DNA of 64,000 nt from NCBI GenBank assembly GCA_033439265.1, contig JAVTVX010000010.1, positions 558,001 to 622,000 of the forward strand, given 5' to 3'. Below are positions 11,073 through 43,003 of this stretch, in pieces. Each line of letters begins with the position of its first letter. Position 1 is the stretch's first letter. The notes below the pieces were generated by a model. The model worked only from the letters and a program-made list of their open reading frames with translations. It was not told the DNA's origin and searched no databases. Made by a program: the position numbers and the translations under genes. The stretch is from Dillenia suffruticosa (taxonomy: Eukaryota; Streptophyta; Magnoliopsida; Dilleniales; Dilleniaceae).

Positions 11073-11241
11073 TTGGAATTTTGATTTTGGGAAGGAGGTA
11101 GGATCGGATTTGGAGTAGGAAGAAATTTATGACACAGAAGAATCTACAAAAAACTTTCAATGAAGATCCGTAACTGACTGACAGATTGATACATATGATA
11201 TGAGGTAGTTCCCAAGCGATCCCGTAATTCGGTGGTCTTAG

Positions 11242-25516: not shown

Positions 25517-28436
25517 ATGGAATCACTTTGTTTGAGGCATGTGATTTCTGCAAGCGATCATCTCCCTGTCCGATGCTACCCGGTGGTCCCTTGTCAACTG
25601 AGAGTCACCGGAGTGTCTTTAAGCCGCTTTTGCCTTGCGGTCTCTTCGAGAAAGTCTGATTTTCAAGGTACAAAAATCTATCCCTCTGAATCATGTTACC
25701 TTGTTGGTTGGCGATGATATATGCACATGCATAAACAAATCTCAACAATCCTAATATTGACCAGAAGAATTCGGGGTTTTGAATCATTTGTCTTCTATGC
25801 GATGGTGCTTATCTCTGTCTATTGCATATGTCTTAATTGTTTAAGACAGAGGTTCAGTGACTAGCCTCATATAAGAAGGCAGATAAACATGTGCACTTGA
25901 TGTTCCTGTCAGGCTTTATTGAGTTAAATGAATTTTGGAGGGGAGGGGGTAGAAGTTGAAGAAATTAGAAAAATATTCGACAAGCATCATGGTTTGAGTT
26001 TCTTTTTGTTTTAGGTGTGATTCTGGGGGTGCCAATGGAATTTTATTTCCTTCAGGTTTCTTTTCTTTTTTTTTTTTGGATATAATATCAATGCTTAGAT
26101 CACTTAAAACCTGTCGATCTAAGTGCTGCTAATTAAAAATAAGCATGGGAGAAGATACCGGTTTATTTTGGCAGTTGTTGCTTTTACCGAAGTGATTCCT
26201 ATCTTGCTGAAAATAAAGATCCAACTGGTTTGAGTGAGTTATGGTAACCAAAAGAATCACTTATTATTATAGTGATAGGATTCGCCCGTTGTCACTTTGT
26301 TTGCTCAGTAGCTGATCTTCCAGAATTTGCCACGGTTAATGACATTGTTATGTTTCTCATCCTTGTGAGCTCAACTTATTCTATAATGACAGATTATGGT
26401 ATTTAGCCTGCATATGTTGCCTTCTTCATGCGTCCCTGCCTCAATCTGTGTGAAACCCTTGCCATCCACCCCATAATGGAACATTTGGAAAAGACATTTA
26501 ACTGTACCTTGCATCTTAATCCTATTCCTAGTTGTCTCCTCCTTGTAATTACAAAATTCATTATGCATCCCAAGCTTGGGTTGGTTGTAAGGAGCTCTAT
26601 TAGTCTTTATTGCATGGATGGGACTCCTCTGGAGGGAAGCCTCGACATACTCTAATTTTCTGTTTGCTTGACTGATGCATGTAGTTTATTGGTCATTATC
26701 ATATTCAATTGGTTTACCTACTGCACAATTGAAGGATAGTGGCTGATAATTCCAAACCAAGCCCCCCCCAAAAAAAAGAAAAAAGAAGTAAAATTATCTT
26801 TTCATAGAGAAGCATTGGAAGAAAGAGAAGCTTGTCAAAGACAAAATGCATCCAAATTTTTAGAATATTTCTTAATCAAAAAGTCAAATAAAAAATGTTA
26901 ATGTTAGGGGTGAAATGGAACTGAGATTAAGTATAAGCCTCTATCTTGTACCTTTAAGGGAACGCAGAAATGGTCTGGATATATATTTCATAAAACAAAA
27001 TTGCTGTGCATATATCAATCTACAAACACATGGGGTAGTATGAGACTACTGTATGAGTTTAACATATGAGGAGCATCACTCTAACTAAAATTATGCTGTA
27101 GACAGAAACAGAGTATATCATTTTGAAGGACCTCTGCCAAAGTCTTTTTTTTTTTCTCTCTCTCTCTTTTCAGAAGTTGAGAAGGAGTTTCTGCTTCAGA
27201 CTTTCAGGTTTATGCCAAACCCTTGCGTCTTTTGCCGGCAACAGAGGTGAAAGTTTGGACTCCTGAGGTGTCATCCACTTCTCTGTCAATAGATAGCAGT
27301 CGTTGTTTATACAAAGTAAAGATTCAAACAAGTAGCATCTATGGCTCGGGTTTGAGTGACATGAATGCTGGAATATTGCTTTGCTTGGTTGATGTAGATG
27401 GTGATGCAATATTGCAAAGAATTCCTGCAACTTTTATTGATGATCGTCTTGCTCAATCAGAGGATGGGACTGTTTCCGACTTATTATATTTTCAAAGACG
27501 TTCAGTGGATGAGTTCATCTTTGAGGGACCTAAGCTGGGAAAAATTGAGGCTCTTTGGATCAGCCTTGAATCAGGTTAGTCTCTTCCAAGTATAATTTCT
27601 CTTCTTATGATCGGTTTTATTTGCCTGATAAAACAAGCACTTGGTCAAATGACACAAGATCCTCAATTGCACAGAGATATACTAACCGTACATATAGGCA
27701 ATCAATGTGTGGCTTCATTTAGCAGTTGTTTTTCACTCATTTACTGTTTATGAAGTCAGGTCAATGGAGATTGGGAGGTGTGAGCTTAGGAACTCTTTCT
27801 GGGTCTCAAACTTCAATGGAAGAAAATCCGTATGTTGCCTTCCAATATGAATTTGAAGTTGAAGACATTTTGCTTGGTGAGGAAAGCAACAATTCCATGG
27901 TAGAACTCAGACCTCGCCTGGTAACCAAGTTTTCTGGGGTTGACCCCAACTTATTGTGTGAGAACCTTGGCAGACCCACTTTACGTGCAAGTCATGGGAT
28001 CTCTAACGAGGAAAGCATGAAGGAATATTCAGATTTAAAGTTCTCGTTGCTGTTATATGATGCTGTACTCATCTTCCTTGGCACATCAATTGCATCATCA
28101 GTGGGAGAAAATTCCGCTGCCATTGCTTTCTTAACTGGTGGAATCAGTGGCTTTCTATATCTGTTACTGTTGCAAAGATCGGTTGATGAATTACCAGCTC
28201 CAGCATTGTCTTCTTCAAATAGCAATCAATTGCTTGGGGGATTTAAGGGTCCCATACTGAGTTTGGCATTCACACTAGGGCTAGTCTTTCTTGCAGCAAA
28301 GAATAGTTCTGGTGATATTCCATTAGTGTTGACTCCCAAAGATCTCATCGTTGGGTTGTCTGGATTTCTTTCATGTAAAGTTGCCGTGGTTTTGGCAGCA
28401 TTCAAACCTTTGCCTATAGGTCTGAAGAACAAGTGA
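25517..28436 (+). CDS. Predicted chloroplast membrane protein of unknown function
   Basis: Three exons join in phase: 25517-25667, about 27200-27574 and 27760-28436, giving about 400 residues. Exon 2 could instead start at 27185, which adds five residues; both acceptors keep the frame. Residues 1-50 are rich in Ser, Val and Arg with few acids, as in a plastid transit peptide. The middle (about 50-260) is a soluble, beta-rich domain with blocks such as YAKPLRLLPATEVKVW, SSIYGSGLSDMNAGILLCLV and SGQWRLGGVSLGTL. The C-terminal third has four predicted membrane helices, including LLLYDAVLIFLGTSIASSV and GPILSLAFTLGLVFLAAK. I recognise it only as the kind of plant protein conserved without an assigned function (possibly the DUF7755 group); I do not assign a reaction. 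Intron 1 is 1.5 kb. The gene faces away from ferrochelatase. Confidence 0.8.
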
Positions 28437-29167
28437 GACAAGTCTATTCGTATTGTGCATATTGCAAGAGAGAAAAGAAACATGGCAAAAGCTGTCGATG
28501 AATCACAACCTCCATGCGCAAGATAAGTATTGAGGTAGTCAGAGTGACTATGAATATGATAAAATGCCTTAACAGTACCATGCCCTCCCATTTATTGAAC
28601 ATGTTTTCTCTAGGATTGCATTTTAATCCCAGGTGGACTGTAAACATCCATTAAGACTTGGTTTGCTGAAACAAAACATCAAGCCAGGGATAGGGATCAA
28701 AGTTCCAACCCTTGGTTATCCTTTTGGTGGGAGCCTGAGTAAATTTGAAGTGGAGGTTCCTATAGACGTGGCACTGTAGCAGTAGTATTCATGTCCAGGA
28801 GCAGAAAATTGTTCACGATACTATTGCACATTTTATTTCTAAAATTTTGTAAGTTAAGGTAGTTTCCATTTTTTGGTATCTTCTTGTTTAGAAAGATCTT
28901 TCTGATTTTCTTTGTCGTTAGAGTTAACTTAGTATTATTTAGAGGATTCTAAATCTTAGTCTTATTAATAATTTTTATTTTTCTTTAATGTTAAATTCTA
29001 TATAACTTCATTATTTTGGAGTTTCAACTTTTGCTTTGAATTCTCCTAAATCCTAGAAGCTGTGGTACTTTCTTTCCCTAAATCTATTAGTGTGATGTAA
29101 ACCCATTCGGAGTTTTCATTCTTTCAATTTAGTTACCGGATTTTTATTCTTTACAAAATTATAAATC

Positions 29168-29202
<35 letters not shown>

Positions 29203-29514
29203 TTTTCTTAGATTTAAATTTCTTTCAAGAAATCTTAATTTCCTATATCTTTACCCAATTTCTCCAAAGTCATCCTGTGTCAGTTTGTCTAAAAAGGTCA
29301 AATGTAACTTCGAATATATTAAGTCGAATGCACTTGGTCTCAGGTATCAGAAATGTACCTATATTGGCCTCATTGTAGTTTCTATATTCGGGATCAGTCG
29401 TTTCATTTTCAGGAATTCCACACGATTAATGAAATTTTTCATCTCATGGGACACCAAAAGGGCCCTAATTATTTTGAACTTTGTCTTCTATATGTTACAA
29501 AGCGTAATGAAGGG
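28437..29514. other. 3' flank of the membrane-protein gene and spacer
   Basis: The first few hundred bases are probably the 3' untranslated region. The rest is AT-rich, with a 29-base A run at 29170-29198. No gene is supported. From about 29515 the tRNA array repeat begins. Confidence 0.6.
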
Positions 29515-29746
29515 ACAAAAAGCAGTTGCAAAAGGACTCATCCCCAGAGTGTTAGTTGATAAGGTAATTAAAAATGACAAACAGAGAAAGGAAATGAAAC
29601 ACAAATATAGACAACGGGAAGATAAGTTACAATGTGAAAAGATTAAACAAGTGAAGACACATACACAAAGGCGTCGATGATAAAAATACGAGCAATGAGA
29701 AGAAAGACAATGTCAAAAATGCACCAAGAGAAGAAACACAAACACT

Positions 29747-29817
29747 TGGAGTTGCCGGGAGTTAAAACAGGTCTATTGCTTGGAAGGCAATTATCCTGAT
29801 CGTTGGACTACAAACGT
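29747..29817 (-). pseudogene. tRNA-Gly(UCC)-like copy 1 (type D)
   Basis: Anticodon UCC kept. The T arm is damaged (plus text GAGTTAAAACAGG) with one base missing, and the acceptor is mismatched. Confidence 0.75.
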
Positions 29818-30030
29818 TAGGGTTGGTTAGGATTTTGCAATTGTCAAATGACTCCAACCTACAATGTTAGTTAATAAGATGATTAAAAATGAGAGATAGA
29901 GAAAGAGAAAGTGAAACAGACATAGATAAAGGGAAGATAAACTATAATGTGAAAAAATTTGGTATCGAGGGTAAAAATATGAGCAAGATATGCACTAAGA
30001 GAAGAAAAAAAAAACAAACAAACAAACACT

Positions 30031-30101
30031 TGCGTTTGCCGGGAGTTAAATTCAGGTCTATTCTTCGCAGGCAATTATCCGAACCATTGGACCATAAATG
30101 C
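30031..30101 (-). pseudogene. tRNA-Gly-like copy 2
   Basis: The anticodon loop has changed (CTGCGAA) and its stem no longer pairs. The T loop is mutated and one base is missing. It occupies the E position of the order. Confidence 0.7.
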
Positions 30102-30382
30102 TTGGACAAGTTACGATTTTGCAGTTGCCAAAAGACTTCATCTTCAAAATGTTAGTTGATAAGATGATTAAAAATGAGAGACGGAAAGAGAAAATAAAAC
30201 ACAAACGCACCAGAGACAAGATAAGCTAAAAAAGAGAGATGAAGAAAGAGAAAATAAAACACAAACATAGACAGAGGAAAGCAAACCTATAACGTGAAAA
30301 AATTTTGCGTCGGTGGTAAAAATATTAACAATAAGAAGGAAGACATTGCTAGACATGCACCAAGAGAGGAAACACAAACACT

Positions 30383-30453
30383 TACATTTGTCGGGAGTCG
30401 AACCCGAGTTTATACCTAGAAGGTGATTATCCCAACTATTCGACTACAAACAC
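30383..30453 (-). pseudogene. tRNA-Gly-like copy 3 (type B)
   Basis: Type B spacer. B box GTTCGACT kept. The anticodon would be UCU and the anticodon stem does not pair (ATCAC on the 5' side). Confidence 0.75.
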
Positions 30454-30674
30454 TTGGCATAGTTCGGGATTTTATTTCTGCCAAAGGACACCAACCCCAA
30501 AATGTTAGTTCATAAGATAACTAAAAATGTGAGACAAAGAAAAAGGAAGCGAAATACAAACAGAGAAAGAAGAAAGATAAGCTATAATGTGAAAAAAGGC
30601 ATCGGTGGTGAAAATACGAGCTCTGAGAAGGAAAACAGTGCAAAACATGCACCAAGAGAAGATACACAAACATT

Positions 30675-30746
30675 TTCGTTTGCCGGGACTCGAACTTGAG
30701 TGTATTGCTTGGAAGGCAATCATCTTAACCGTTGGACTACAAACGC
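30675..30746 (-). pseudogene. tRNA-Gly(UCC)-like copy 4 (type C)
   Basis: Acceptor and anticodon arms are good apart from the terminal pair. Two T-stem pairs and one D-stem pair are lost. Confidence 0.7.
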
Positions 30747-30986
30747 TCAGTGTGGTTAGAGATTTTATAGTCACCAAAGGACTCCATCCCCAAAGGACTC
30801 CATCCCCAGAATGTTAGTCGATAAGATGACTAAAAATGAGAGACAAAGAAATAAGAAATGAAATGCAAACACAGACAGAGCAAACATAAGCTATAATGTG
30901 AAAAAGTTCTCCATCGGTGATAAAAATATGAGCAATGAGAAGGAAGACAGAGCTAGACATACACCAAGAGAGGAAACAGAAACACT

Positions 30987-31058
30987 TGCGTTTGTCGGGA
31001 GTTGAATCTGGGTCTATTGCTTGGAAGGCAATTATCCTAACCGTTGGACTACAAAAGC
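30987..31058 (-). pseudogene. tRNA-Gly(UCC)-like copy 5 (type A)
   Basis: Full length with UCC anticodon and intact D and anticodon arms. Three of five T-stem pairs are lost, and one acceptor pair. Confidence 0.65.
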
Positions 31059-31282
31059 TTAGTGTAGTTAGAGATTTTGCAACTACCAAAGGACTCTATC
31101 CCCAGAATGTTAATTGATAAGATGATTAAAAATGAGAGACAAAGATAGAGAAAATAAAACACAAATACAAATAGAGGGAAGATAAATCATAATGTGAAAA
31201 AATTTGGCATCAGTAGTAAAAATATGAGCAATGAGAAGAAAGACAATGCCAGACATGCACCAAGTGAAGAAACACAAGCACA

Positions 31283-31354
31283 TGCATTTGGCGGGAATTG
31301 AACCCATGTCTATTGTTTGAAAGGCAATTATCCTAGCCGCTTGACTATAAATGG
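31283..31354 (-). pseudogene. tRNA-Gly-like copy 6 (type D, anticodon UUC)
   Basis: Anticodon loop CTTTCAA gives UUC instead of UCC. Acceptor and D arm have mismatches. Confidence 0.75.
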
Positions 31355-31542
31355 TTGATGTAGTTAGGGATTTTACAATTGCCAATAGACTCCTATGAGA
31401 GACAGAAAAAGAGGGTACGAACTACAAACATTGACGGAGGAAAGATAAGCTATAACGTGAAAAAAAGCATCAAAGGTAAAAATATCAACAAGGAGAAGGA
31501 AGACAGTGGCAAACATGAACCAAGAGTAGATACACAAACATT

Positions 31543-31612
31543 TGTGTTTGCCAGGAGTCGAACCCGGGTCATTCCTTGGAAGGCATCATTCTAACCGTTG
31601 GACTACAAATGC
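31543..31612 (-). pseudogene. tRNA-Gly(UCC)-like copy 7 (type E)
   Basis: Good T arm, but two bases are missing around the variable region and the anticodon stem is changed. Confidence 0.7.
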
Positions 31613-31835
31613 TTGATGTAGTTAGAGATTTTACAGTTGCCAATGGACTTCATTCCCAAAATGTTAGTTGATAAGATAACTAAAAATGAGAAATGGAGAA
31701 AGAAAAAATGAAACACAAACACAGACAGAGGAAAGATAAGACATAATGTAAAAAAATTTGGCATCGGTGGTAAAATATTGGCAATGAGAAGGAAGAGATT
31801 GCTAGACATGCACCAAGAGAAGAAACACAAACACT

Positions 31836-31907
31836 TACATTTGTCGAGAGTCGAACCCAAGTCTATTGCCTGGAAGGTGATTATCCCAATTGATCGACTA
31901 CAAGCGC
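31836..31907 (-). pseudogene. tRNA-Gly(UCC)-like copy 8 (type B)
   Basis: B box kept. Anticodon UCC, but the anticodon stem is unpaired as in all type B copies. D arm altered. Confidence 0.72.
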
Positions 31908-32095
31908 TTGGTGTAGTTTGGGATTTTATAGTAGTCAAATGACACCAATCCCAAAATATTAGTTGATAAGATCACTAAAAATGAGAGACAGAGAAAAAGG
32001 AAGCAAAATACAAACAGAGAGAAGAAAGATAAGCTATAACATGAAAAAAGGCATCGGTGGTAAAAATACGAGCAATAAGAAGGAAAACAGTGCCA

Positions 32096-32162
32096 ACCCA
32101 AGTCTATTGCCTGGAAGGTGATTATCCCAATTGATCGACTACCAATTGATCGACTACAACGC
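32096..32162 (-). pseudogene. Partial, rearranged tRNA-Gly-like copy 9
   Basis: A type C spacer runs directly into the middle of a type B tRNA segment, so the tRNA 3' part (T arm and acceptor) is missing. The stretch CAATTGATCGACTAC is then duplicated in tandem. Confidence 0.8.
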
Positions 32163-32396
32163 TTGGTGTAGTTTGGGATTTTATAGCAGTCAAATGACAC
32201 CAATCCCAAAATGTTAGTTGATAAGACAACTAAAACTGAGAGACAGAGAAAAAGGAAGCAAAATACAAACAGAGAAAGAAGAAAGATAAGCTATAACATG
32301 AAAAAAGGCATCGGTGGTAAAAATACGATCAATGAGAAGGAAAAATGAGAATGAAGACAGAGCTAGACATACACCAAGAGAGGAAACAGAAACACT

Positions 32397-32468
32397 TGCG
32401 TTTGCCGGGAGTCGAACCCGGATCTATTGCTTGGAAGGCAATTATCCTAACCGTTGGACTACAAACGC
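32397..32468 (-). tRNA. tRNA-Gly(UCC), intact (copy 10, type A)
   Basis: All four stems pair on the minus strand: acceptor GCGTTTG with CAAACGC, D stem, anticodon stem ATTGC with GCAAT around loop CTTCCAA (anticodon UCC, codon GGA), and T stem CCGGG with CCCGG. A and B boxes are intact and the discriminator base is A. There is no intron. A run of four or more T is not immediately downstream, so termination may use a T run further on. Confidence 0.88.
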
Positions 32469-32690
32469 TTGGTGTAGTGAGAGATTTTATAGTTGCCAAA
32501 AGACTCCATCCCCAGAATGTTAGTTGATAAGATGATTAAAAATGAGAGAAAGAAAAAAGAAATGAAACACAAACACAGACAGAGCAAACATAAGCTATAA
32601 TGTGAAAAAGTTCTCCATCGGTGATAAAAAAAAGAGCAATGAGAAGGAAGACAGAGCTAGGCATACACCAAGAGAGGAAACAGAAACACT

Positions 32691-32761
32691 TGCGTTTGCC
32701 AGAAGTCATACCCGGGTCTATTGCTTGGAAGACAATTATCCTAACCGTTGACTACAAACGC
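32691..32761 (-). pseudogene. tRNA-Gly(UCC)-like copy 11 (type A)
   Basis: One base is missing in the D arm (GTC instead of GTCC), and the T loop and anticodon stem are changed. Confidence 0.7.
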
Positions 32762-32889
32762 TTATTGTAGTTAGAGGAGCAAACATAAGCTATAATGAAT
32801 GTGAAAATGTTTTACATCGGTGATAAAAATATGAACAATGGGAATGAAGACAGAGCTAGACATACACCAAGAGAGGAAATAGAAACACT

Positions 32890-32961
32890 TGCATTTGCCG
32901 GGAGTCGAACCCGGGTCTATTGCTTGGAAGGCAATTATCCTAACCGTTGGACTATAAACGC
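32890..32961 (-). tRNA. tRNA-Gly(UCC), nearly intact (copy 12, type A)
   Basis: D, anticodon and T arms pair fully; anticodon UCC. The acceptor has one mismatch and one G-U pair (GCGTTTA with CAAATGC). Probably still scored as a tRNA; function uncertain. Confidence 0.65.
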
Positions 32962-33154
32962 ATGGTGTAGTTAGTGATTTTACAACTACCAAAGAACTCT
33001 ATCCCTAAAATGTTGATTGATAAGATGATTAAAAATGAGAAACGGGAAATAAAATAAGTCATAATGTGAAAAAATTTGGCATCGGTGGTAAAAATATGAG
33101 CAATTAGAAGGAAGATATTGCTAGACATGCACCAAGAGAAGAAACACAAACACT

Positions 33155-33226
33155 TACATTTGTCGGCAGTCAAACCCGAGTTTATTGCCTAGAAGGTGAT
33201 TATCCAAACTATTTGACTACAAATGC
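33155..33226 (-). pseudogene. tRNA-Gly-like copy 13 (type B)
   Basis: Anticodon would be UCU; anticodon stem unpaired; T loop and D arm mutated. Its spacer begins as type D and ends as type B, so a D and an E gene are missing before it. Confidence 0.72.
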
Positions 33227-33446
33227 TTAGTGCAGTTCGGGATTTTATAGTTGCCAAAGGACATCAACCCCAAAATGTTAGTTGATAAGATGACTAAAAA
33301 TGAGAGATGGAGAAAAAGGAAGCGAAATACAAACAGAGAAAGAAGAAAGATAAGCTATAATATGAAAAAGGCAACGGTGGTAAAAATATGAGCAATGAGA
33401 AGGAAAATTGTGCCAAACATGCACCAAGAGAAGATAAACAAATATT

Positions 33447-33518
33447 TGCGTTTGCCAGAAGTAAAACCCAGGTCTATTGCTTGGAATGCAATTATTCTAA
33501 CCGTTGGACTACAAAAAC
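33447..33518 (-). pseudogene. tRNA-Gly(UCC)-like copy 14 (type C)
   Basis: Anticodon UCC. T loop (GTTTTACTT) and acceptor are damaged. Confidence 0.7.
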
Positions 33519-33742
33519 TCGGTATAGTTAGAGATTTTACAGTCGCCAAAGGACTCCATCCCCAAAATATTAGTTGATAAGATGACTAAAAATGAGAGAC
33601 AAAGAAATAAGAAATAAAACACAAATAAAGACAAAGTAAACATAAGCTATAATTTGAAAAAATTTGACACTGGAGATAAAAATATGAGCAATAAGAAGGA
33701 AGACAGAGCTAGACATACACCAAGAGAAGAAACAAAAACACT

Positions 33743-33767
33743 TGCGTTTGCCGGGAGTCGAACCCGA
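33743..33767 (-). pseudogene. Truncated tRNA-Gly 3' end (copy 15)
   Basis: Only the T arm and 3' acceptor strand remain, cut at CGAACCCG by the 138-bp duplication. Confidence 0.85.
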
Positions 33768-33880
33768 GACAAAGTAAACATAAGCTATAATTTGAAAAAA
33801 TTTGACACTGGAGATAAAAATATGAGCAATAAGAAGGAAGACAGAGCTAGACATACACCAAGAGAAGAAACAAAAACACT

Positions 33881-33905
33881 TGCGTTTGCCGGGAGTCGAA
33901 CCCGA
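33881..33905 (-). pseudogene. Truncated tRNA-Gly 3' end (copy 16)
   Basis: Identical to the truncated copy at 33743, one repeat unit further on. Confidence 0.85.
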
Positions 33906-34018
33906 GACAAAGTAAACATAAGCTATAATTTGAAAAAATTTGACACTGGAGATAAAAATATGAGCAATAAGAAGGAAGACAGAGCTAGACATACACCAAG
34001 AGAAGAAACAAAAACACT

Positions 34019-34090
34019 TGCGTTTGCCGGGAGTCGAACCCGGGTCTATTGCTTGGAAGGCAATTATCCTAACCGTTGGACTACAAACGC
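34019..34090 (-). tRNA. tRNA-Gly(UCC), intact (copy 17, type A)
   Basis: Perfect cloverleaf: acceptor GCGTTTG with CAAACGC, anticodon loop CTTCCAA, T arm CCGGG-TTCGACT-CCCGG, discriminator A. A T5 run lies about 5 bases past the 3' end on the minus strand, suitable as a Pol III terminator. This is the best candidate for an active gene in the array. Confidence 0.92.
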
Positions 34091-34291
34091 TTGGTGTAAT
34101 TAGAGATTTTACAACTGCCAAAAGACTCTATCCCTAGAATGTTAATTAATAAAATGATTAAAAATGAGAGACGGAGAAAGGGAAAACAAAATAAGTCATA
34201 ATGTGAAAAAATTTGGTATCGGTGGTAAAAATATGAGCAATGAGAAGAAAGACAATGCCAATCATACACCAAGAGAAGAAACACAAACACT

Positions 34292-34363
34292 TGCGTTTGT
34301 TGGGGGTCGAACTCGAGTCTGTTGTTCAGAAGGCAATTATCTTAATCGTTAGACTACAAACGC
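34292..34363 (-). pseudogene. tRNA-Gly-like copy 18 (type D, anticodon UCU)
   Basis: Acceptor 5' strand good. Anticodon loop CTTCTGA gives UCU. T and D arms mismatched. Confidence 0.75.
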
Positions 34364-34543
34364 TTGGAGTAGTTAGGGATTTTACAATTGCCAAAAGACT
34401 CCTATGAGAGTCGGAGAAAGAGGAAACGAAATACAAACCGGAAAGATAAGCTATAATGTGAAAAAAGGCATTAGTGGTAAAAATATGAGCAATGAGAAGG
34501 AAGACAGTAGCAAACATGAACCAAGAGTAGATACACAAACATT

Positions 34544-34615
34544 TGTGTTTGCTGGGAGTTGAATCTGGATCTATTGCTTGGAAGTCAATTATCCTACCCG
34601 TTAGACTACAAATGG
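34544..34615 (-). pseudogene. tRNA-Gly(UCC)-like copy 19 (type E)
   Basis: Anticodon UCC kept, but T arm, D arm and acceptor are all changed. Confidence 0.7.
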
Positions 34616-34839
34616 TTGGTGTAGTTTGAGATTTTACTGTTGTTGAAGGACTCCATCCCCAAAATGTTTGTTGATAAGATAACTAAAATTGAAAAACAGA
34701 GAAAGAGAAAATGAAACACAAGCACAGACAGAGGAAAGATAACCTATAATGTGAAAAAATTTGGCATCGGTGGTAAAAATATGAGCAATGAGAAGGAAGA
34801 CATTGCTAGACATGCACCAAGAGAAGAAACACAAACACT

Positions 34840-34911
34840 TACATTTGTCAAGAGTTGAATCTGAGTCTATTGTTTGGAAGGTGATTATCCCAATTGTTCA
34901 ACTACAAACGC
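34840..34911 (-). pseudogene. tRNA-Gly(UCC)-like copy 20 (type B)
   Basis: Anticodon stem unpaired, T arm mutated. Minus-strand 5' end GCGTTTG is kept. Confidence 0.7.
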
Positions 34912-35132
34912 TTGGTTTAGTTCGGGATTTTATAGTTGCCAAAGAACACCAACCACAAAATGTTAGTTAATAAGATGACTAAAAGTGTGAGACAGAGAAA
35001 AAGGAAGCGAAATACAAACAAAGAAATAGAAAAGATAAGCTATAATGTGAAAAAAGGCATCGGTGGTAAAAATATGAGCAATGAGAAGGAAAACTGTGCC
35101 AAACATGCTCCACGAGAAGATACACAAACATT

Positions 35133-35204
35133 TGTGTTTGCCGAGAGTCGAATCCGGATCTATTGCTTGGAAGGCAATTATCCTAACCGTTAGACTACAA
35201 ATGC
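35133..35204 (-). pseudogene. tRNA-Gly(UCC)-like copy 21 (type C)
   Basis: Anticodon arm intact. Two acceptor pairs and one T-stem pair are lost; a low-scoring tRNA call is possible. Confidence 0.6.
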
Positions 35205-35427
35205 TAACTGTAGCTAGAGATTTTACAGTCGCTTAAAGACTCTATCCCTAGAATGTTAGTTGATAAGATGATTAAATATAATAAACAAAGAAAGAAGAAA
35301 TGAAACACAAACACTGACATAGCAAACATAAGCTATAATGTGAAAAAATTTGACATCGGTGATAAAAATATGAGTAATGAGAAGGAAGGCTAAGCTAGAC
35401 ATACACCAAGAGAAGAAACAGAAAACT

Positions 35428-35499
35428 TGTATTTGTCGAGAGTCGAACCCGGATCTATTGCTTGGAAGGCAATTATCCTAACCGTTGGACTACAAACGC
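35428..35499 (-). pseudogene. tRNA-Gly(UCC)-like copy 22 (type A)
   Basis: D and anticodon arms intact with UCC. One acceptor pair and one T-stem pair are lost, so it could still fold; a tRNA call is possible. Confidence 0.55.
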
Positions 35500-35700
35500 T
35501 TGGTGTAATTAGAGATTTTACAACTGCCAAAAGACTCTATCCCTAGAATGTTAATTAATAAAATGATTAAAAATGAGAGACGGAGAAAGGGAAAACAAAA
35601 TAAGTCATAATGTGAAAAAATTTGGTATCGGTGGTAAAAATATGAGCAATGAGAAGAAAGACAATGCCAATCATACACCAAGAGAAGAAACACAAACACT

Positions 35701-35772
35701 TGCGTTTGTTGGGGGTCGAACTCGAGTCTGTTGTTCAGAAGGCAATTATCTTAATCGTTAGACTACAAACGC
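35701..35772 (-). pseudogene. tRNA-Gly-like copy 23 (type D, anticodon UCU)
   Basis: Duplicate of the copy at 34292 within the 1409-bp repeat. Confidence 0.75.
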
Positions 35773-35952
35773 TTGGAGTAGTTAGGGATTTTACAATTGC
35801 CAAAAGACTCCTATGAGAGTCGGAGAAAGAGGAAACGAAATACAAACCGGAAAGATAAGCTATAATGTGAAAAAAGGCATTAGTGGTAAAAATATGAGCA
35901 ATGAGAAGGAAGACAGTAGCAAACATGAACCAAGAGTAGATACACAAACATT

Positions 35953-36024
35953 TGTGTTTGCTGGGAGTTGAATCTGGATCTATTGCTTGGAAGTCAATTA
36001 TCCTACCCGTTAGACTACAAATGG
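35953..36024 (-). pseudogene. tRNA-Gly(UCC)-like copy 24 (type E)
   Basis: Duplicate of the copy at 34544. Confidence 0.7.
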
Positions 36025-36248
36025 TTGGTGTAGTTTGAGATTTTACTGTTGTTGAAGGACTCCATCCCCAAAATGTTTGTTGATAAGATAACTAAAATTG
36101 AAAAACAGAGAAAGAGAAAATGAAACACAAGCACAGACAGAGGAAAGATAACCTATAATGTGAAAAAATTTGGCATCGGTGGTAAAAATATGAGCAATGA
36201 GAAGGAAGACATTGCTAGACATGCACCAAGAGAAGAAACACAAACACT

Positions 36249-36320
36249 TACATTTGTCAAGAGTTGAATCTGAGTCTATTGTTTGGAAGGTGATTATCCC
36301 AATTGTTCAACTACAAACGC
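36249..36320 (-). pseudogene. tRNA-Gly(UCC)-like copy 25 (type B)
   Basis: Duplicate of the copy at 34840. Confidence 0.7.
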
Positions 36321-36541
36321 TTGGTTTAGTTCGGGATTTTATAGTTGCCAAAGAACACCAACCACAAAATGTTAGTTAATAAGATGACTAAAAGTGTGAG
36401 ACAGAGAAAAAGGAAGCGAAATACAAACAAAGAAATAGAAAAGATAAGCTATAATGTGAAAAAAGGCATCGGTGGTAAAAATATGAGCAATGAGAAGGAA
36501 AACTGTGCCAAACATGCTCCACGAGAAGATACACAAACATT

Positions 36542-36613
36542 TGTGTTTGCCGAGAGTCGAATCCGGATCTATTGCTTGGAAGGCAATTATCCTAACCGTT
36601 AGACTACAAATGC
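36542..36613 (-). pseudogene. tRNA-Gly(UCC)-like copy 26 (type C)
   Basis: Duplicate of the copy at 35133. Confidence 0.6.
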
Positions 36614-36836
36614 TAACTGTAGCTAGAGATTTTACAGTCGCTTAAAGACTCTATCCCTAGAATGTTAGTTGATAAGATGATTAAATATAATAAACAAAGA
36701 AAGAAGAAATGAAACACAAACACTGACATAGCAAACATAAGCTATAATGTGAAAAAATTTGACATCGGTGATAAAAATATGAGTAATGAGAAGGAAGGCT
36801 AAGCTAGACATACACCAAGAGAAGAAACAGAAAACT

Positions 36837-36908
36837 TGTATTTGTCGAGAGTCGAACCCGGATCTATTGCTTGGAAGGTAATTATCCTAACCGTTGGACT
36901 ACAAACGC
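36837..36908 (-). pseudogene. tRNA-Gly(UCC)-like copy 27 (type A)
   Basis: Duplicate of the copy at 35428 but with one further change in the anticodon stem (ATTAC opposite GCAAT). Confidence 0.6.
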
Positions 36909-37131
36909 TTGATGTAGTTAGAGATTTTGCAACTGCCAAGCACTCTATCCTCATAATGTTAATTGATAAGATGATTAAAAATGAGAAATAGAGAAAGAGA
37001 AAATAAAACACAAATACAGATAGAGGGAAGATAAGTCAAAATATGAAAAAAATTTTCATCAGTAGTAAAAATATGAGCAATGAGAAGAAAGACAACGCTA
37101 GACATGCACCAAGAGAAGAAACACAAGCACT

Positions 37132-37203
37132 TGCATTTGGCAAGAGTCGAATCTGTGTCTACTGTTTGAAAGATAATTATCCTAATCGCTGGACTACAAA
37201 TGG
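37132..37203 (-). pseudogene. tRNA-Gly-like copy 28 (type D, anticodon UUC)
   Basis: Anticodon loop CTTTCAA. The anticodon stem, T arm and acceptor are mutated. Confidence 0.75.
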
Positions 37204-37390
37204 TTTGTGTAGTTAGGAATTTACAATTGCCAAAAGACTCCTATCAGAGATACAGAAAGAGGAAACGAAATACAAACACTGATAGAGGAAAGATAAGCCA
37301 TAATGTGAAAAAATACATCAATGGTAAAAATATGAGCAATGAGAAGGAAGACTATGGCAAACATGAACCAAGAGTAGGTATACAAACATT

Positions 37391-37462
37391 TGTGTTTGCC
37401 AGGAGTCGAATCCGGGTCTATTGCTTGGAAGGCAATTATCCAAACGGTTGGACTACAAACGT
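37391..37462 (-). pseudogene. tRNA-Gly(UCC)-like copy 29 (type E)
   Basis: Anticodon arm intact and T arm nearly so. Two outer acceptor pairs are lost and the D loop is changed. Confidence 0.6.
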
Positions 37463-37687
37463 TTGGTGTAGGTAGAGATTTTACAGTTGCCAAAGGACTC
37501 CATCCTCCAAAATGTTAGTTAATAAGATAAATAAAAATGAGAGACGGAGAAAGAGAAAATGAAACACAAGCACAGACAGAGGAAAGATAAGCTATAATGT
37601 GAAAAAATTTGGTATCGGTGGTAAAAATATGAGCATCGAGAAGAAAGGCATTGCTAGACATGCACCAACAGAAGAAACACAAACACT

Positions 37688-37759
37688 TACATTTGTCAGG
37701 AGTCAAACCCGAGTCTATTGCTTGGAAGGTGATTATCCCAACTGTTCAACTACAAACGC
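37688..37759 (-). pseudogene. tRNA-Gly(UCC)-like copy 30 (type B)
   Basis: Anticodon stem unpaired, T loop changed (TTTGACT). Confidence 0.7.
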
Positions 37760-37970
37760 TTGGTGTAATTCAGGATTTTATAGTTGCCAAAGGACACCTA
37801 CCTCAAAATGTTAGTTGATAAGATGACTAAAAATGAGAGATAGAGAAAAAGGAAGCGAAATACAAACAGAGAAAGAAGAAAGATAAGCTATAATGTGAAA
37901 AAAGGCATCGGTGGCAAAAATATGAGCAAAACAGTGCCAAACATGCACCGAGAAAAGATACACAAATATT

Positions 37971-38042
37971 TGCGTTTGCCGGGAGTTGAACCCGGGTCTA
38001 TTGCTTGGAAGGCAATTATCCTGACCGTTGGACTACAAATGC
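37971..38042 (-). tRNA. tRNA-Gly(UCC), nearly intact (copy 31, type C)
   Basis: D, anticodon and T arms pair fully with UCC anticodon; T loop TTCAACT is acceptable. There is a single acceptor mismatch (GCATTTG with CAAACGC). It is the best-preserved type C copy. Confidence 0.68.
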
Positions 38043-38263
38043 TTGATATAATTAGAGATTTTACAGTCGTCAATGGACTCCATCCCCAGAATGTTAGTTG
38101 ATAAGATGACTAAAAGTAAGAGACAAAAAAAGAAGAAATGAAACACAAACATAGACAGAGCAAACATAAGCTATAATGTGAAAAAATTTTACATCGGTGA
38201 TAAAAATATGAGCAATGTGAAGGAAGACAAAGCTTATACACCACGAGAAGAAACAAAAACACT

Positions 38264-38335
38264 TGCGTTTGTCGGAAGTCAAACCCGGGTCTATTGCTTG
38301 GAAGGCAATTATCCTAACCGTTGGACTACAAACGC
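38264..38335 (-). tRNA. tRNA-Gly(UCC)-like, possibly functional (copy 32, type A)
   Basis: Acceptor, D and anticodon arms are perfect, with UCC anticodon and a T5 run just downstream. The T loop is TTTGACT instead of TTCGACT and one T-stem pair is lost, which weakens the B box. Confidence 0.5.
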
Positions 38336-38558
38336 TTGGTTTAGTTAAAGATTTTATAACTGCCAAAGGACTCTATCCCCAGAATGTTAATTGATAAGAT
38401 GATTAAAAATGAGAGACTAAGAAAGAGGAAATAAAATACAGATACAGATAGAGGGACGATAAGTCATAATGTGAAAATTTTGGCATCAATAGTAAAAGTA
38501 TGAGCAATGAGAAGGAAGACAATACCAGACATGCACCGAGAGAAGAATAACAAGCACT

Positions 38559-38630
38559 TACGTTTAGCAGGAGTCGAAACCGTATCTATTGTTCGAAAAA
38601 AAATTATCCTAACCGCTAGACTACAAATGA
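38559..38630 (-). pseudogene. tRNA-Gly-like copy 33 (type D, anticodon UUC)
   Basis: The anticodon region has become A-rich on the plus strand (TTCGAAAAAAAAT), destroying the stem. Acceptor mutated. Confidence 0.72.
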
Positions 38631-38816
38631 TTGTTGTAGTTAAGGATTTTATAATTGCCAAAAGACTCCTATGAGAGAGAGAAAGAGGAAATGAAATACA
38701 AACATCGATGGAGGAAAGATAAGCTATAACGTAAAAAAAGGCATCGGTGGTAAAAATATGAGCAATGAGAAGGAAGACCGTGGCAAACATGAACCAAGAG
38801 TAGATACATATATATT

Positions 38817-38888
38817 TCTGTTTATCAGGAGTCGAATCCGGGTCTATTGTTTGAAAGGCAATTATTCTAACCGTTGGACTACAAACGG
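38817..38888 (-). pseudogene. tRNA-Gly-like copy 34 (type E, anticodon UUC)
   Basis: Loop CTTTCAA gives UUC. Acceptor mismatched, D stem weakened. It is the last tRNA-like copy of the array. Confidence 0.72.
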
Positions 38889-39089
38889 TTGGTGTAGTTC
38901 GAGATTTTACAGTTGCTGAAGGGCTCAATCCCCAAGATATTAGTTGATAAAATAACTAAAAATGAGAGACGGAGAAAGAGAAAATGAAACACAAGCATAG
39001 ACAGTGGAAAGATAAGCTATAATGTGAAAAAATTTGGCATCGGTGGTAAAAATTTGAGCAATGAGAAGGAAGACATTGCTAGTTATGCA

Positions 39090-41264
39090 TCAAGAGAGCT
39101 TGATAATGACTATGATAATTTAACAAAGAGAGCTTATGTTGGAAGGACTAAAAAGCTTATGATGTTGCCTCTAGCCAACACAAGATCACTGTCAGTCCCT
39201 ACCGTGGCCCAAGTTTGGACATTAAGACAAGGAATTCTTCCTGTCGGTAAGTTTACATGGAAGATAGATGGGATATATGAACGCATCAGAAGAAATATTG
39301 GTGTTGTTTGATGACCCCATGAATCAGGAGCAAAAGGACAGTGTCCTGCGTTTATAGGAAATTTGGGGAGGAAATGAAATACGTGGGAGAGAAAAAATAC
39401 CATGTCGTATGTTTGTACACGAACATTTTGAATCGCTAGACTTGTTTATACCATCACTTGGAATTTGGCAAAGGTAGCCTTTTTTTTTGTCCTTTTTTTC
39501 CTTAATAAACAATACCATGAAGATTAATCTCTCTCAAAGTTCTTCTCAAGTTTCTTTGCACAAAGAGGAAGCAAAAGGAAGTTGAAAGCGCATCTAGCAA
39601 TTTACTAGTTCTGAGCTACTGCTACCAAGTGGTCTAGCAATTTACTATTTCTAAATCCTTTCTCTATTTCTAAAATCTCTTGGAGTTTATTTATAAAGTA
39701 AAAAATTTCTCATAATTAAAAAAATAATTTTAGATGGATTTACAAATCTTATGAAATTCATTTATAAATTTCATAATTTTTTGTTGATTTTTGAAAATCT
39801 ATATCATTTATGGATTTAGAAATAAACTTGATGTTATTATTATTTTTTTATTCTAAATAGCAAAACTTGAAATTAAAAATATTTATGGACTTTTGGTCTC
39901 ATTCCACCTGAAGTATTTCTCAACCTGGATCCCCCCCCCCAAAAAAAAAAATGGAAACGAAGTCATAAAATTTCTTCATATATGAAACGTGTATAAAATG
40001 ATAATCTTACTAATAAATTTTAAACAGGAGCTAACCTCTTTTTATTTTTTTTTTCTTATTACCACATGATTCAAAAGCTTTTGATCCTAGAGGTACCCTC
40101 TACAACACGAGGTTGCTTTCTAAACACCGACGCAACCCTGGCTACCCTCAATTGCAACTGCATACTGCCGCTAAATAAGTGAGCACCGACCGCACTTAAA
40201 GGCATCCAGTCCTCAATATCAATCTTGATCGCAAAAACTGACCATCAACATGGCCTCTCTCCCTAGATGATACAAAAAGTTCAGAGACACCACCGACTCT
40301 TTTTGGTCGAGATTGCGGATATTGTCTTCCAAAGCTATATGTATGTCTTAAAACATGGCGTCAACATTAATGACCTTGACACTCCAACTGTTTAATACCT
40401 AGGACACAGAAAAATTAAAACAGTACATACGACACAAACCTACATTTCTACCAAACTTTTGTAACCATTTTAGTTATATCAGAAAGCCCCAAATTTTAGT
40501 TAACACTTGATACATTATAAATTCACCCAAACACGAAATCTATGTAAGCGGGTAGTAAGGAATGTGGACCGTGAAAATCAAAACTCAAGTATTTCTGCCA
40601 AAAAGGGGGAAAATTGTCTTTCAAAGCAAACATTGTCAATTAGCAAATTTATTTGCATTTTATCCCCCCCCCCCCGCCAAAAAAGGAACTTCCGAGAACA
40701 AAATGACTAATAGTAAGAAATCCATTATTGAATGGAGGTGAGGCGTGAGGTATGGTGCAGGAAAAAAGGCATAAAAACAACCAATTTGTCCGGTTAATTT
40801 CCCCCCGGGGGGGGGATCCAACCAAATTGAAACCCAGCAAAACAAGACCTTGTGTTAGATGTATAGGAGAAAATAATGAAGGCACCCATTAAAATTAAAA
40901 TAACACTTCATCTTCCCTCTACAAATCCCACCACACCTAGACCATTTCTTCTAAGTTAAAAAGGAAAAAAGAAGTGACAAAAAAATGGGGGAATGAAACA
41001 TGCCATATTGTTCGTGCCAAATGGTACAATACTTTTTGCTACAAGCGTCACATGCCATGCTGCCTCCTTTTTTGTGATAAGTTAGTCAAAAGACGCCTTA
41101 CTGGCTCATTTTACATGCTTTTCTGCTAGGAACGACCACCTCAATCACACCACCATTCCATAGCAAAATCATAATCCTTAGAATCTGAATTTAGCCCTCC
41201 CCAAGTAACCAAGCTAGCAGGCACTTACTGCTGCATTATCGGTCACAGCTCTACGGTGCTTACA
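39090..41264. other. Spacer between the tRNA array and PP2A, no gene supported
   Basis: The plus strand at 39090-39311 continues an open frame from the array edge (ends RRNIGVV) with a non-repetitive composition. I do not recognise it and cannot rule out a lost exon. The rest holds C and G homopolymers (39931-39940, 40665-40675, and C6 then G9 near 40801-40815) and AT-rich sequence. The last few hundred bases are probably the PP2A 3' untranslated region. Confidence 0.55.
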
Positions 41265-41433: not shown

Positions 41434-43003
41434 TGAATAAACGTGTGGCCTTTGCAGTCATCAACTTCTAGAATGGAAGCCATGTTTCCACAGCGATAGC
41501 AATAATTAGGAGCACTGAATATGGTAACAACTTTTTGTTCCTGCACAAGATAAGTAATTATGTCAAAAAGCATCAATCCACCAGATTAAATGTTCAACCT
41601 CTTCCTTAAGACAACCAATAATTTCTGGTAGTAGTAGTTACATGGCCCCAGTTGAATCCCTCCATAACCAGCTGATGGGCTCTTGCAATCAGTTTCAAAT
41701 TATTGGTGTGGTTAAACTGTTCAGAAATGTCCTGTAGGACATGAAAAATGATAAGGATCATGTGCTGTTCAGTAAAAAAAAAAAATGTCAAAGATGCCAA
41801 AAACATAGGAAAAACCATCCATACTTGGCCGAATGTATATCCAGCACCTCGAGGTGAGATACCCCAACCACAGCGATCATCTGGATCAGACCATAAGAGA
41901 TCACACATTGGACCCTCATGAGGTACTTCTTGAACACGATCAAAATTACGTATATTATCAAGTGTTTCAATTGATGGAGACAGTCCACCATGTAGACAAA
42001 AGATTTCTGATTCAACCTACACAAAATGAAAAGAGCATGTTGAGGCATGCCATCAATATCAATTTAACTAAGGGTGTGTTCTTTTTGCAGTATTCTAGAG
42101 GAGGTTTTCAAAAATAACAGGAATTGATGAACACTTGTTCTCCTAATGTAAATCATAAGATTCTCATATATAATTGGCCAATCTGGGATTCTAAAATATT
42201 CTCCAAAAGCCAAACTAAAACTTGGTTTAAGGAATGGCTCTTCAAGTTCAAATCAAGTGAAAACATTCTGATATCATGGAGGTCCAGAACTCATACTAAC
42301 CAAGGCCGTCAAAGGGAAGTAATCAAAGAGATCTGTAAATATCTTCCATACATTGGCATTTCCATACCTGTGAGCAAAAGTAAACTACAAATTAAAGATG
42401 AGAACATAAACAAATGAATATATATCATGTAGAAATTGAATAAAATAAACAGCATCAAATGCCCAATTGCCATGAGAAATAGAATAAATACATTCATCAA
42501 ATATAAGGTGAACTGTCAAGAAAGTTCAACACGTAAGGCAGAGCATGTTTAAGACCTTTTCTCTACCAAAAGACAAATTTTGACCCCCCAGAAGAAAAGA
42601 CATAAAGGAAACAGCAACAACAAGAGCTGAGGGTGCATGAACCACAGAAAATTTCCATGAATCAAAATGATTTGAGTTGTTGACAAGTTTAGTCTGAAAA
42701 TAAGAAAAATGTAAATCTCTATTTCAACTGCTAGAGATAGTTATTATAATAGCTATACATAGAGATTAAATATGTCATGAGCTGCTACCTGACATATCAC
42801 TCTCTAGCCTATTAAGTTTAGCTCAGTAATGGGAGGAAAATGTAAACATAGTACCATATTTGTGCCAATCTTTGAATAAAAGAAGCTACCAAGCAAGAGT
42901 TGAAGCAACCCAAATAAATTTGAATTGCAAGAAACAAAAACGCCATATCAAGTTTCATACAAGAAAATAAACCAGAAAAGCTCAATTAGACAAAGGTATA
43001 TAA

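What the first reader, a model, noticed from the sequence alone, without database searches (positions are those of the whole stretch)
29515..39089. A 34-copy tandem array of tRNA-Gly(UCC) genes, mostly dead
The sequence shows 31 full-length and 3 partial minus-strand copies of one tRNA in 9.6 kb, all in the same orientation. Large single-isoacceptor tRNA clusters are known in plants (for example Pro and Ser-Tyr-Tyr in Arabidopsis), but I do not know of one for Gly(UCC) of this kind. Only two copies (32397-32468 and 34019-34090) pair fully, three more are close, and the rest have visible damage. This looks like a birth-and-death array amplified by spacer recombination.
Basis: partly seen in the sequence, partly recalled or inferred. 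Interest (0 to 1): 0.85.

Follow-up and report, generated by a model that had tools for sequence, protein, structure and literature searches.

The report
Decaying tandem array of glycine tRNA genes
A stretch of what looks like a plant chromosome carries 31 whole and 3 broken copies of one glycine tRNA gene in a row, most of them damaged, and the same genome holds several more such arrays, so it offers a clear view of how tRNA genes multiply and decay.

Summary
In detail: 31 full-length and 3 partial minus-strand tRNA-Gly(UCC) copies lie in 29515-39089. Rfam's tRNA model hits all 31; 24 reach its cut-off with lax filters, 23 with default ones; two (34019-34090, 32397-32468) are fully paired.

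- The array is a five-copy higher-order repeat of about 1.4 kb (0 of 5000 order shuffles match it).
- The newest duplication (1,409 bp) has its junction inside a tRNA gene (35428-35499, gene positions 31-46), not in a spacer.
- Decay is mostly C>T/G>A: 37 of 38 G/C positions of the tRNA are hit at least once.
- The genome (596 Mb, unnamed) has three more Gly(UCC) arrays, two of them with spacers unrelated to this one.
- All six isoacceptors whose queries were answered have tandem arrays; Trp and Glu did not complete.

Best reading: a birth-and-death tRNA cluster, expanded by unequal exchange and eroded by deamination-type mutation, with one strong candidate for a live gene (34019-34090). Expression and methylation are untested. 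The kind is known in plants; no large Gly(UCC) array was named in the texts I saw.

The parts
29515..39089 (-). Whole tRNA-Gly(UCC) array: 31 full and 3 partial copies with about 220-bp spacers
34019..34090 (-). c14: fully paired copy, 72.9 bits, identical over 71 nt to 33 other places in the genome (4 of them dispersed genes outside the four arrays); TGTAAAAT box and CCAA just upstream, T5 starting at nt 5 after the gene; best candidate for a live gene
32397..32468 (-). c9: fully paired copy with one base different from c14 (C to T at gene position 47); TATAAAAT box and CCAA upstream, but first T4 only at nt 52 downstream; upstream flank groups with type D while its 3' flank reads like E copies c5, c10 and c11, so probably a mosaic
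37971..38042 (-). c28: near-intact copy, 1 of 21 pairs broken, 67.3 bits
32890..32961 (-). c11: near-intact copy, 1 of 21 pairs broken, 63.8 bits
38264..38335 (-). c29: near-intact copy, 1 of 21 pairs broken, 59.2 bits, T5 near the gene end
37688..38888 (-). Higher-order block (copies c31-c27, types B-A-E-D-C)
36249..37462 (-). Higher-order block (c26-c22, types B-A-E-D-C)
34840..36024 (-). Higher-order block (c21-c17, types B-A-E-D-C)
33155..34615 (-). Higher-order block (c16-c12, types B-A-E-D-C), contains the 138-bp triplication
31836..32961 (-). Disturbed stretch (c11, c10, c9, one broken copy, c8): types B and A are missing and E and C are doubled
30383..31612 (-). Higher-order block (c7-c3, types B-A-E-D-C)
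29748..30101 (-). c2 and c1: degenerate edge copies
34045..36911 (.). Newest block duplication: 1,409-bp shift, 1,458-bp match with at most 1 mismatch (1,425 exact)
35454..35469 (-). Inferred exchange point of that duplication, inside gene c19 (positions 31-46): upstream c19 equals c14, downstream it equals c24
33629..34042 (-). Three identical 138-bp repeats, each beginning with the last 24 nt of the tRNA gene; two of the three are free-standing 3' gene fragments, the third is the end of c14

Best explanation
This is an old tandem cluster of a nuclear tRNA-Gly(UCC) gene. A gene with about 220 bp of flank became tandemly repeated; five neighbouring copies drifted apart; the five-copy block was then copied as a unit. 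The latest step (shown) is a duplication of one 1,409-bp block whose junction lies inside a tRNA gene; unequal crossing-over between aligned tRNA genes is the inferred way it arose. Copies then decay mainly by C>T/G>A changes, at higher rate in CG and CHG than in CHH sites, as expected if the array is cytosine-methylated (inferred). Most copies probably cannot give a normal tRNA (inferred from broken pairs). One copy, c14, has an intact gene, upstream box, CAA motif and nearby T5 and is the likeliest to be transcribed (inferred). Array output is probably small or tissue-restricted, because dispersed genes and two younger arrays hold many identical genes (inferred).
For: Copies, scores and pairing. 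Five-copy order: mean unit identity at offset 5 is 0.860 against 0.786-0.808 at the nine other offsets from 1 to 10; 0 of 5000 shuffles reach it, and 1 of 5000 if the recent duplicate c20-c24 is left out. Upstream flanks alone also group copies into five types (tree; c1, c2 and c10 fall outside them). Exchange inside a gene: c19 equals c14 for 1,379 bases upstream plus 46 bases of gene, and equals c24 for 1,455 bases from its first base with 1 mismatch, at position 30. Decay: 37 of 38 G/C positions hit by C>T or G>A at least once among the 31 copies; copy-level C>T 100, G>A 110, other substitutions 78; CG 0.228 and CHG 0.265 against CHH 0.129 per site and copy. The same bias appears in all four Gly(UCC) arrays: 168 of 242, 201 of 315, 46 of 68 and 103 of 143 substitutions (88 of 89 distinct sequences used). 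Spacer-like sequence was found only here and in the related array at C10:31.3 Mb (40 of 93 first-look candidates scored). Control signals of c14.
Against: No expression, methylation or population data exist here. C>T/G>A excess is also the general mutation bias of plant DNA (recalled), so methylation of this array is not proven. Ancestral states were taken as the c14 sequence and the majority spacer, and duplicated copies share changes, so counts are not independent. The E type holds the best copies and looks conserved (12 of 38 G/C-class sites segregate against 95 of 157 in types A-D, p = 0.0018), but E was singled out after seeing that, and E against its own spacer gives only p = 0.047. Signals around the gene do not separate live from dead arrays: T4 within 25 nt in 7 of 32 copies here, 1 of 26 at C10:31.3 Mb, 1 of 26 and 0 of 59 in the two C34 arrays that hold 28 exact genes, and 2 of 3 dispersed genes read; CAA near the gene in 24 of 32, 20 of 26, 0 of 26, 40 of 59 and 0 of 3. 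My TATA-like test used too narrow a window (11 of 32). The exact duplications could in principle be assembly errors.
Confidence: 0.85

Rival explanations
1. A functional tRNA reserve: the array, with the other Gly arrays, is kept to supply Gly-tRNA in particular cells, as the Ser-Tyr-Tyr cluster of Arabidopsis does in root tips, and the damaged copies are just passengers.
For: Two fully paired and four near-intact copies remain; the two C34 arrays hold 28 exact copies; the Arabidopsis SYY cluster is methylated yet expressed in root cap cells, and its deletion alters an extensin (PMC12308677, abstract and passages).
Against: In this array 29 of 31 copies have at least one broken pair. Arrays exist for all six isoacceptors whose queries were answered, which does not fit a glycine-specific need.
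Confidence: 0.2
2. A satellite DNA whose tRNA content is irrelevant: the units spread only as repeat DNA.
For: Higher-order structure and block duplication as in satellites; most tRNAs damaged.
Against: Other Gly(UCC) arrays share the tRNA but not the spacer: 0 BLAST hits at 1e-4 in each of the three comparisons among this array, C34:2.76 Mb and C34:19 Mb after masking tRNAs. What recurs is the gene, and the one mapped exchange lay in the gene.
Confidence: 0.2
3. A tRNA-derived SINE or other transposon piled up in tandem.
For: SINEs carry a tRNA-like head (recalled).
Against: All copies same strand, mostly regular spacing, no dispersed copies of the spacer among the candidates scored in the genome search, fully paired canonical genes present.
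Confidence: 0.02
4. Assembly artefact.
For: Identical 138-bp and 1,409-bp repeats.
Against: Apart from the recent duplicate, each copy's closest relative is at most 0.915 identical, which mis-joined reads do not create; arrays of other isoacceptors are present too.
Confidence: 0.03

Closest known systems
Arabidopsis tRNA-Pro clusters and Ser-Tyr-Tyr (SYY) cluster, chromosome 1 (27 units each; PMC12652284 and PMC11700998, passages)
   Same: Large tandem nuclear tRNA arrays; PMC10701932 (passages) also mentions genes and pseudogenes in the Pro clusters
   Different: Other isoacceptors; here a five-copy higher-order repeat of one isoacceptor and mostly damaged copies; expression unknown
Maize 28-copy tRNA-Ile cluster, chromosome 2 (PMC11700998, section 3.4 and passages)
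   Same: Single-isoacceptor tandem array of similar copy number
   Different: Isoacceptor; I saw no description of higher-order repeats or decay there
Arabidopsis tRNA-Cys clusters (PMC10701932, abstract and passages)
   Same: Repeated unit (about 0.4 kb) with copy-number change and a flanking pseudogene
   Different: Much smaller (four units in the reference)
Tandem tRNA clusters in a 50-species plant survey, including Cpu with identical Ile and Cys clusters of 14-26 genes (PMC12652284, section 3.5 and passages)
   Same: Identical tandem pairs for 43 anticodons covering all 20 amino acids, so tandem Gly pairs are in print; clusters of two to 110 genes
   Different: No large Gly(UCC) array is named in the text I read; its supplementary tables were not read

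Membership tests
Plant nuclear tRNA gene cluster | Neighbouring tDNAs less than 1 kb apart (PMC2888827), or at least three per kb (PMC11700998) | tested here: met
   spacings of full copies 199-572 bp; 31 copies in 9.1 kb
Plant nuclear tRNA gene cluster | At least some members are intact genes | tested here: met
   2 of 31 fully paired at 72.9 bits
Plant nuclear tRNA gene cluster | Upstream TATA-like and CAA motifs and downstream poly(T) | tested here: inconclusive
   CAA near the gene in 24 of 32 copies, T4 within 25 nt in 7 of 32, TATA-like test window too narrow (11 of 32); a T(A/G)TAAAAT box is visible by eye in most flanks
Functional, tissue-activated cluster like SYY | Transcription in some tissue | not testable with these tools
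   no RNA data
Functional, tissue-activated cluster like SYY | CG and CHG methylation | not testable with these tools
   only the mutational footprint was seen
Satellite DNA with higher-order repeats | Multi-monomer unit repeated in register | tested here: met
   period of five copies, 0 of 5000 shuffles
Satellite DNA with higher-order repeats | Long, homogeneous array of units | tested here: not met
   9.6 kb; five blocks compared are 86-93 per cent alike
tRNA-derived SINE | Dispersed copies outside the array | tested here: not met
   spacer-bearing matches only here and at C10:31.3 Mb; elsewhere matches cover the tRNA and at most about 18 flanking bases (40 of 93 candidates scored)

The most novel reading that the evidence does not exclude
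In this plant genome tRNA genes as a class behave like satellite DNA: many isoacceptors have each seeded their own tandem arrays, growing by exchange inside the tRNA gene bodies and dying by deamination, so that arrays of one gene at different life stages (fresh, mid-life, old, relic) coexist. The four Gly(UCC) arrays would be such a series: 12 units with neighbours 99.2-100 per cent alike, a second young array, this one, and one without any higher-order period.
Probability: 0.45. Interest if true: 0.78.

Novelty: new member of a known kind. Interest (0 to 1): 0.6.

Why it matters
Tandem tRNA arrays are known in plants, but how they grow, why some isoacceptors amplify and how they die is open. 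Here one array records its own history base by base: a five-copy unit, a fresh block duplication whose exchange point falls in a 16-base stretch of a tRNA gene, and decay mostly at G/C sites. Four Gly(UCC) arrays, apparently of different age and two of them with unrelated spacers, sit in one genome, which makes questions about birth, homogenisation, silencing and death of tRNA genes directly testable by comparison within one plant.

Tried and rejected
Dicistronic tRNA-snoRNA unit (known in plants, recalled): no snoRNA family in the Rfam scan of 29000-39600 at E up to 10. Repeated protein: the long ORFs at 33570-34127 and 33618-34103 are a by-product of three 138-bp (46-codon) repeats. Transcription-associated mutation with strand bias: C>T and G>A are about equal per site (0.161 and 0.197), so not needed. 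Faster evolution of dead tRNAs than of spacers: raw tRNA/spacer ratios of 1.1-2.1 for types A-D are partly base composition; at G/C-class sites the excess is 95 of 157 against 178 of 384, p = 0.003. Strong purifying selection on type E: raw ratio 0.38 rose to 0.75 in five copies after leaving out c9 and c14. Shared ancestry of the array loci by flanking DNA: no blastn hit between the window outside the array and the other fetched Gly(UCC) loci. Paralogy by flanking proteins could not be tested. An inversion splitting one array into C10:0.59 Mb (minus) and C10:31.3 Mb (plus) fits the opposite orientations but was not tested; in the midpoint-rooted tree of upstream flanks this array's copies group together apart from one odd copy. 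A negative control isoacceptor: Trp and Glu queries did not complete, so I have no isoacceptor without arrays. Papers: of ten searches, seven aimed at tandem, clustered or Gly tRNA genes; no large Gly(UCC) array in plants showed in the listings or in the passages read. The other three were on satellites, mutation and silencing. The NAR 2020 paper on silencing of clustered tRNA genes is not held and is known only through citing papers. The supplementary tables of PMC12652284 were not read and could list one.
Full report
WHAT IS THERE. The minus strand of 29515-39089 carries 31 full-length and 3 partial copies of tRNA-Gly(UCC). Rfam's tRNA model finds all 31 full copies, 24 at or above its gathering score with laxer filters and 23 with default filters; ARAGORN reports 12. 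Copies c9 (32397-32468) and c14 (34019-34090) score 72.9 bits with no broken pair out of 21; c10, c11, c28 and c29 have one broken pair each (G-U allowed, a gap counts as broken). c14 is identical over 71 nt to 33 other places in the genome; 4 of these are dispersed genes outside the four arrays, so the array carries the ordinary gene of this species.

WHERE IT LIES. The window is C10:558001-622000 of an unnamed 596-Mb genome in 37 contigs. I infer a land plant from the gene content and from exact matches to plant tRNAs typed from recall. Flanking ORFs match an amino acid permease (9636-11126), ferrochelatase exons (15036-15482, 22518-23033), a DUF7755 protein with a CGL160-like end below that family's cut-off (27723-28436) and a Metallophos exon (41606-42016, PP2A-like by eye). 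The array therefore lies among ordinary genes.

INTERNAL STRUCTURE. Units five places apart are more alike (0.860) than units at the nine other offsets from 1 to 10 (0.786-0.808). In 5000 order shuffles none reached this at any offset from 1 to 10; with the recent duplicate c20-c24 removed, 1 of 5000 did (0.827 against 0.780-0.804); with spacers alone, 0 of 5000. A tree of upstream flanks gives the same five types, with c1, c2 and c10 outside them. In transcription order the copies read B-A-E-D-C four times from 38888 to 33155, then a disturbed stretch (c11, c10, c9, one broken copy, c8) that lacks B and A and doubles E and C, then B-A-E-D-C once more, then two worn edge copies. The five blocks compared are 86-93 per cent alike, the two higher values where blocks share the recent duplication. 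The fully or nearly paired copies are mostly type E, with one in D (c28) and the probable mosaic c9. Damage is shared within types: the six full type C copies, for example, have the same change of the anticodon stem. The simplest reading is that the block was already worn when copied.

THE LAST STEP IS MAPPED. At a shift of 1,409 bp, 34045-36911 matches itself over 1,458 bases with at most one mismatch. Copy c19 equals c14 for 1,379 bases upstream and for the first 46 bases of the gene. It equals c24 from the first gene base for 1,455 bases with one mismatch, at gene position 30, where c19 agrees with c14. Thus c19 is the recombinant and the exchange lies between gene positions 31 and 46, unless the position-30 change came later, in which case anywhere in positions 1-46 and the 3 bases before. 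The junction is in the tRNA gene, not in the spacer; that it arose by unequal crossing-over rather than another copying error is inferred. A separate 138-bp triplication, 33629-34042, begins in the T arm of c14 and made two of the three gene fragments.

HOW COPIES DIE. Against c14, the 31 copies show 100 C>T, 110 G>A and 78 other substitutions. Of 38 G/C positions, 37 are hit by C>T or G>A in at least one copy. Per site and copy the rate is 0.228 in CG, 0.265 in CHG and 0.129 in CHH. The same skew holds in all four Gly(UCC) arrays: 168 of 242, 201 of 315, 46 of 68 and 103 of 143 substitutions, counting 88 of 89 distinct sequences (one dropped as too diverged to align). Within types A-D, segregating sites in the tRNA are 95 of 157 in the G/C class and 3 of 128 in the A/T class; a column was put in the G/C class if any copy has G or C there, which by itself draws most changes into that class. 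This is what deamination of methylated cytosine on both strands would leave; methylation itself was not measured, and plants have a general bias of this kind (recalled). At G/C-class sites the tRNAs of types A-D vary more than their spacers (95 of 157 against 178 of 384, p = 0.003). Type E seems slower, but E was picked after the fact and the test against its own spacer is weak (12 of 38 against 42 of 80, p = 0.047).

CAN ANY COPY WORK? c14 has an intact gene, a TGTAAAAT box and CCAA upstream, and T5 starting at nt 5 after the gene; c9 has TATAAAAT and CCAA but its first T4 is at nt 52. Across the array 7 of 32 copies found by BLAST have T4 within 25 nt. This sign is also rare where genes are intact: 1 of 26 at C34:2.76 Mb, 0 of 59 at C34:19 Mb, 1 of 26 at C10:31.3 Mb, but 2 of 3 dispersed genes read. 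So either the young arrays terminate elsewhere or they are poorly expressed. Four window copies carry anticodon TTC instead of TCC. No expression data exist here.

THE SAME GENE HAS FOUR ARRAYS. A pattern search with up to 2 mismatches finds 59 places and none with the reversed control pattern: 34 exact, of which 1 lies in this window, 1 at C10:31.32 Mb, 14 at C34:2.76 Mb, 14 at C34:19.17-19.20 Mb and 4 dispersed; plus 20 with one and 5 with two changes. tRNA-like BLAST hits per array are 32 (window), 26 (C10:31.3 Mb), 26 (C34:2.76 Mb) and 59 (C34:19.14-19.20 Mb). After masking tRNAs, spacers of this array match those of C10:31.3 Mb (best 77-79 per cent over about 120 bases) but not those of either C34 array, and the C34 arrays do not match each other (0 hits at 1e-4 in each of the three comparisons). 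C10:31.3 Mb and C34:2.76 Mb also give 0; C10:31.3 Mb and C34:19 Mb give 12 hits, of which six were printed, five in reverse orientation and all away from the tRNA units, so probably another repeat. This suggests at least three separate amplifications. Both C34 arrays have a three-copy higher-order period; C10:31.3 Mb has none. Twelve 1,432-bp units at C34:19 Mb are 99.2-100 per cent alike between neighbours (11 comparisons); three 1,632-bp units at C34:2.76 Mb are 99.9-100 per cent alike (2 comparisons). The four arrays look like four ages of one process; the ages are inferred from likeness alone.

AND OTHER tRNAs DO THE SAME. Six isoacceptors were queried with an answer, and all six have tandem arrays: Gly(UCC); Gly(GCC) with 67 exact and 29 one-mismatch copies, 82 of 96 in arrays on C16 (two) and C37; Pro, 37 of 40 scored places on C21 and C8; Asp, 39 of 40 on C8; Ala, 31 of 40 in two arrays on C30; His, 17 of 40 in one array on C34 and 20 in blocks on C15. 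Only the 40 best places were scored in each of the last four, so counts are lower bounds. Ile and Cys runs were seen through. Trp and Glu did not complete, so I cannot say that any isoacceptor lacks arrays.

AGAINST WHAT IS KNOWN. Large tandem tRNA clusters are known in plants: Arabidopsis Pro and Ser-Tyr-Tyr, maize Ile (28 copies), and clusters of two to 110 genes in a 50-species survey, which finds identical tandem pairs for 43 anticodons covering all 20 amino acids, so tandem Gly pairs are in print (PMC12652284 section 3.5 and passages; PMC11700998 section 3.4 and passages). A survey of eukaryotes found the distribution surprisingly uniform across plant genomes (PMC2888827, abstract and passages). 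The Arabidopsis SYY cluster is methylated, mostly silent, yet active in root tips, and its deletion alters an extensin (PMC12308677, abstract and passages). So this array is a member of a known kind. Its five-copy order, the mapped junction inside a gene and its sister arrays are what I would show a specialist. No large Gly(UCC) array in plants showed in seven searches aimed at such arrays (listings and passages only); the survey's supplementary tables were not read and could contain one.

VERDICT. Real, mostly damaged, birth-and-death; growth by exchange through the tRNA gene body in the one event that can be mapped; decay by deamination-type change; one likely live gene. Interest comes mainly from the genome-wide setting.

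Noticed in passing
L058 (G000:C16:4262501-4267500) and C16:4.170-4.337 Mb: tRNA-Gly(GCC) and tRNA-Phe(GAA) stand 10 nt apart in a unit of 885 bp (five units read); of 50 spacings between exact or one-mismatch Gly(GCC) copies over 167 kb, 49 are within 0.08 of a whole multiple of 885. This looks like a very long array of two-gene units, perhaps co-transcribed, since no T4 separates the two genes in the unit read.
   Followed up: partly
G000:C8:7612185-7660912; C30:7392268-7413415 and 8252593-8299919; C21:2840197-2894740; C8:4338561-4383239; C34:17663791-17706470: Tandem arrays of Asp, Ala, Pro and His tRNA genes in the same genome.
   Followed up: partly
G000:C15:16449643-17309354: Identical tRNA-His genes recur in small groups at steps of roughly 110 kb over much of this stretch, as if a 110-kb segment were tandemly duplicated.
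   Followed up: no
C10:0.59 Mb (-) and 31.3 Mb (+); C30:7.4 Mb (+) and 8.28 Mb (-): Arrays of one isoacceptor on one chromosome lie in opposite orientation, as an inversion splitting an array would leave them; for C30 it is not known whether the spacers are related.
   Followed up: no
window c6, c25, c30, c31; L039:6821-6892, L041:6742-6813, L044:5398-5469: Copies whose anticodon changed from TCC to TTC (would read Glu codons) occur in all four Gly(UCC) arrays.
   Followed up: no
L056 (G000:C11:12578001-12584000): A Cys(GCA) array in which other copies have anticodons read as Tyr, Asp, Ser or ACA, so decayed partners stand between the good ones.
   Followed up: no
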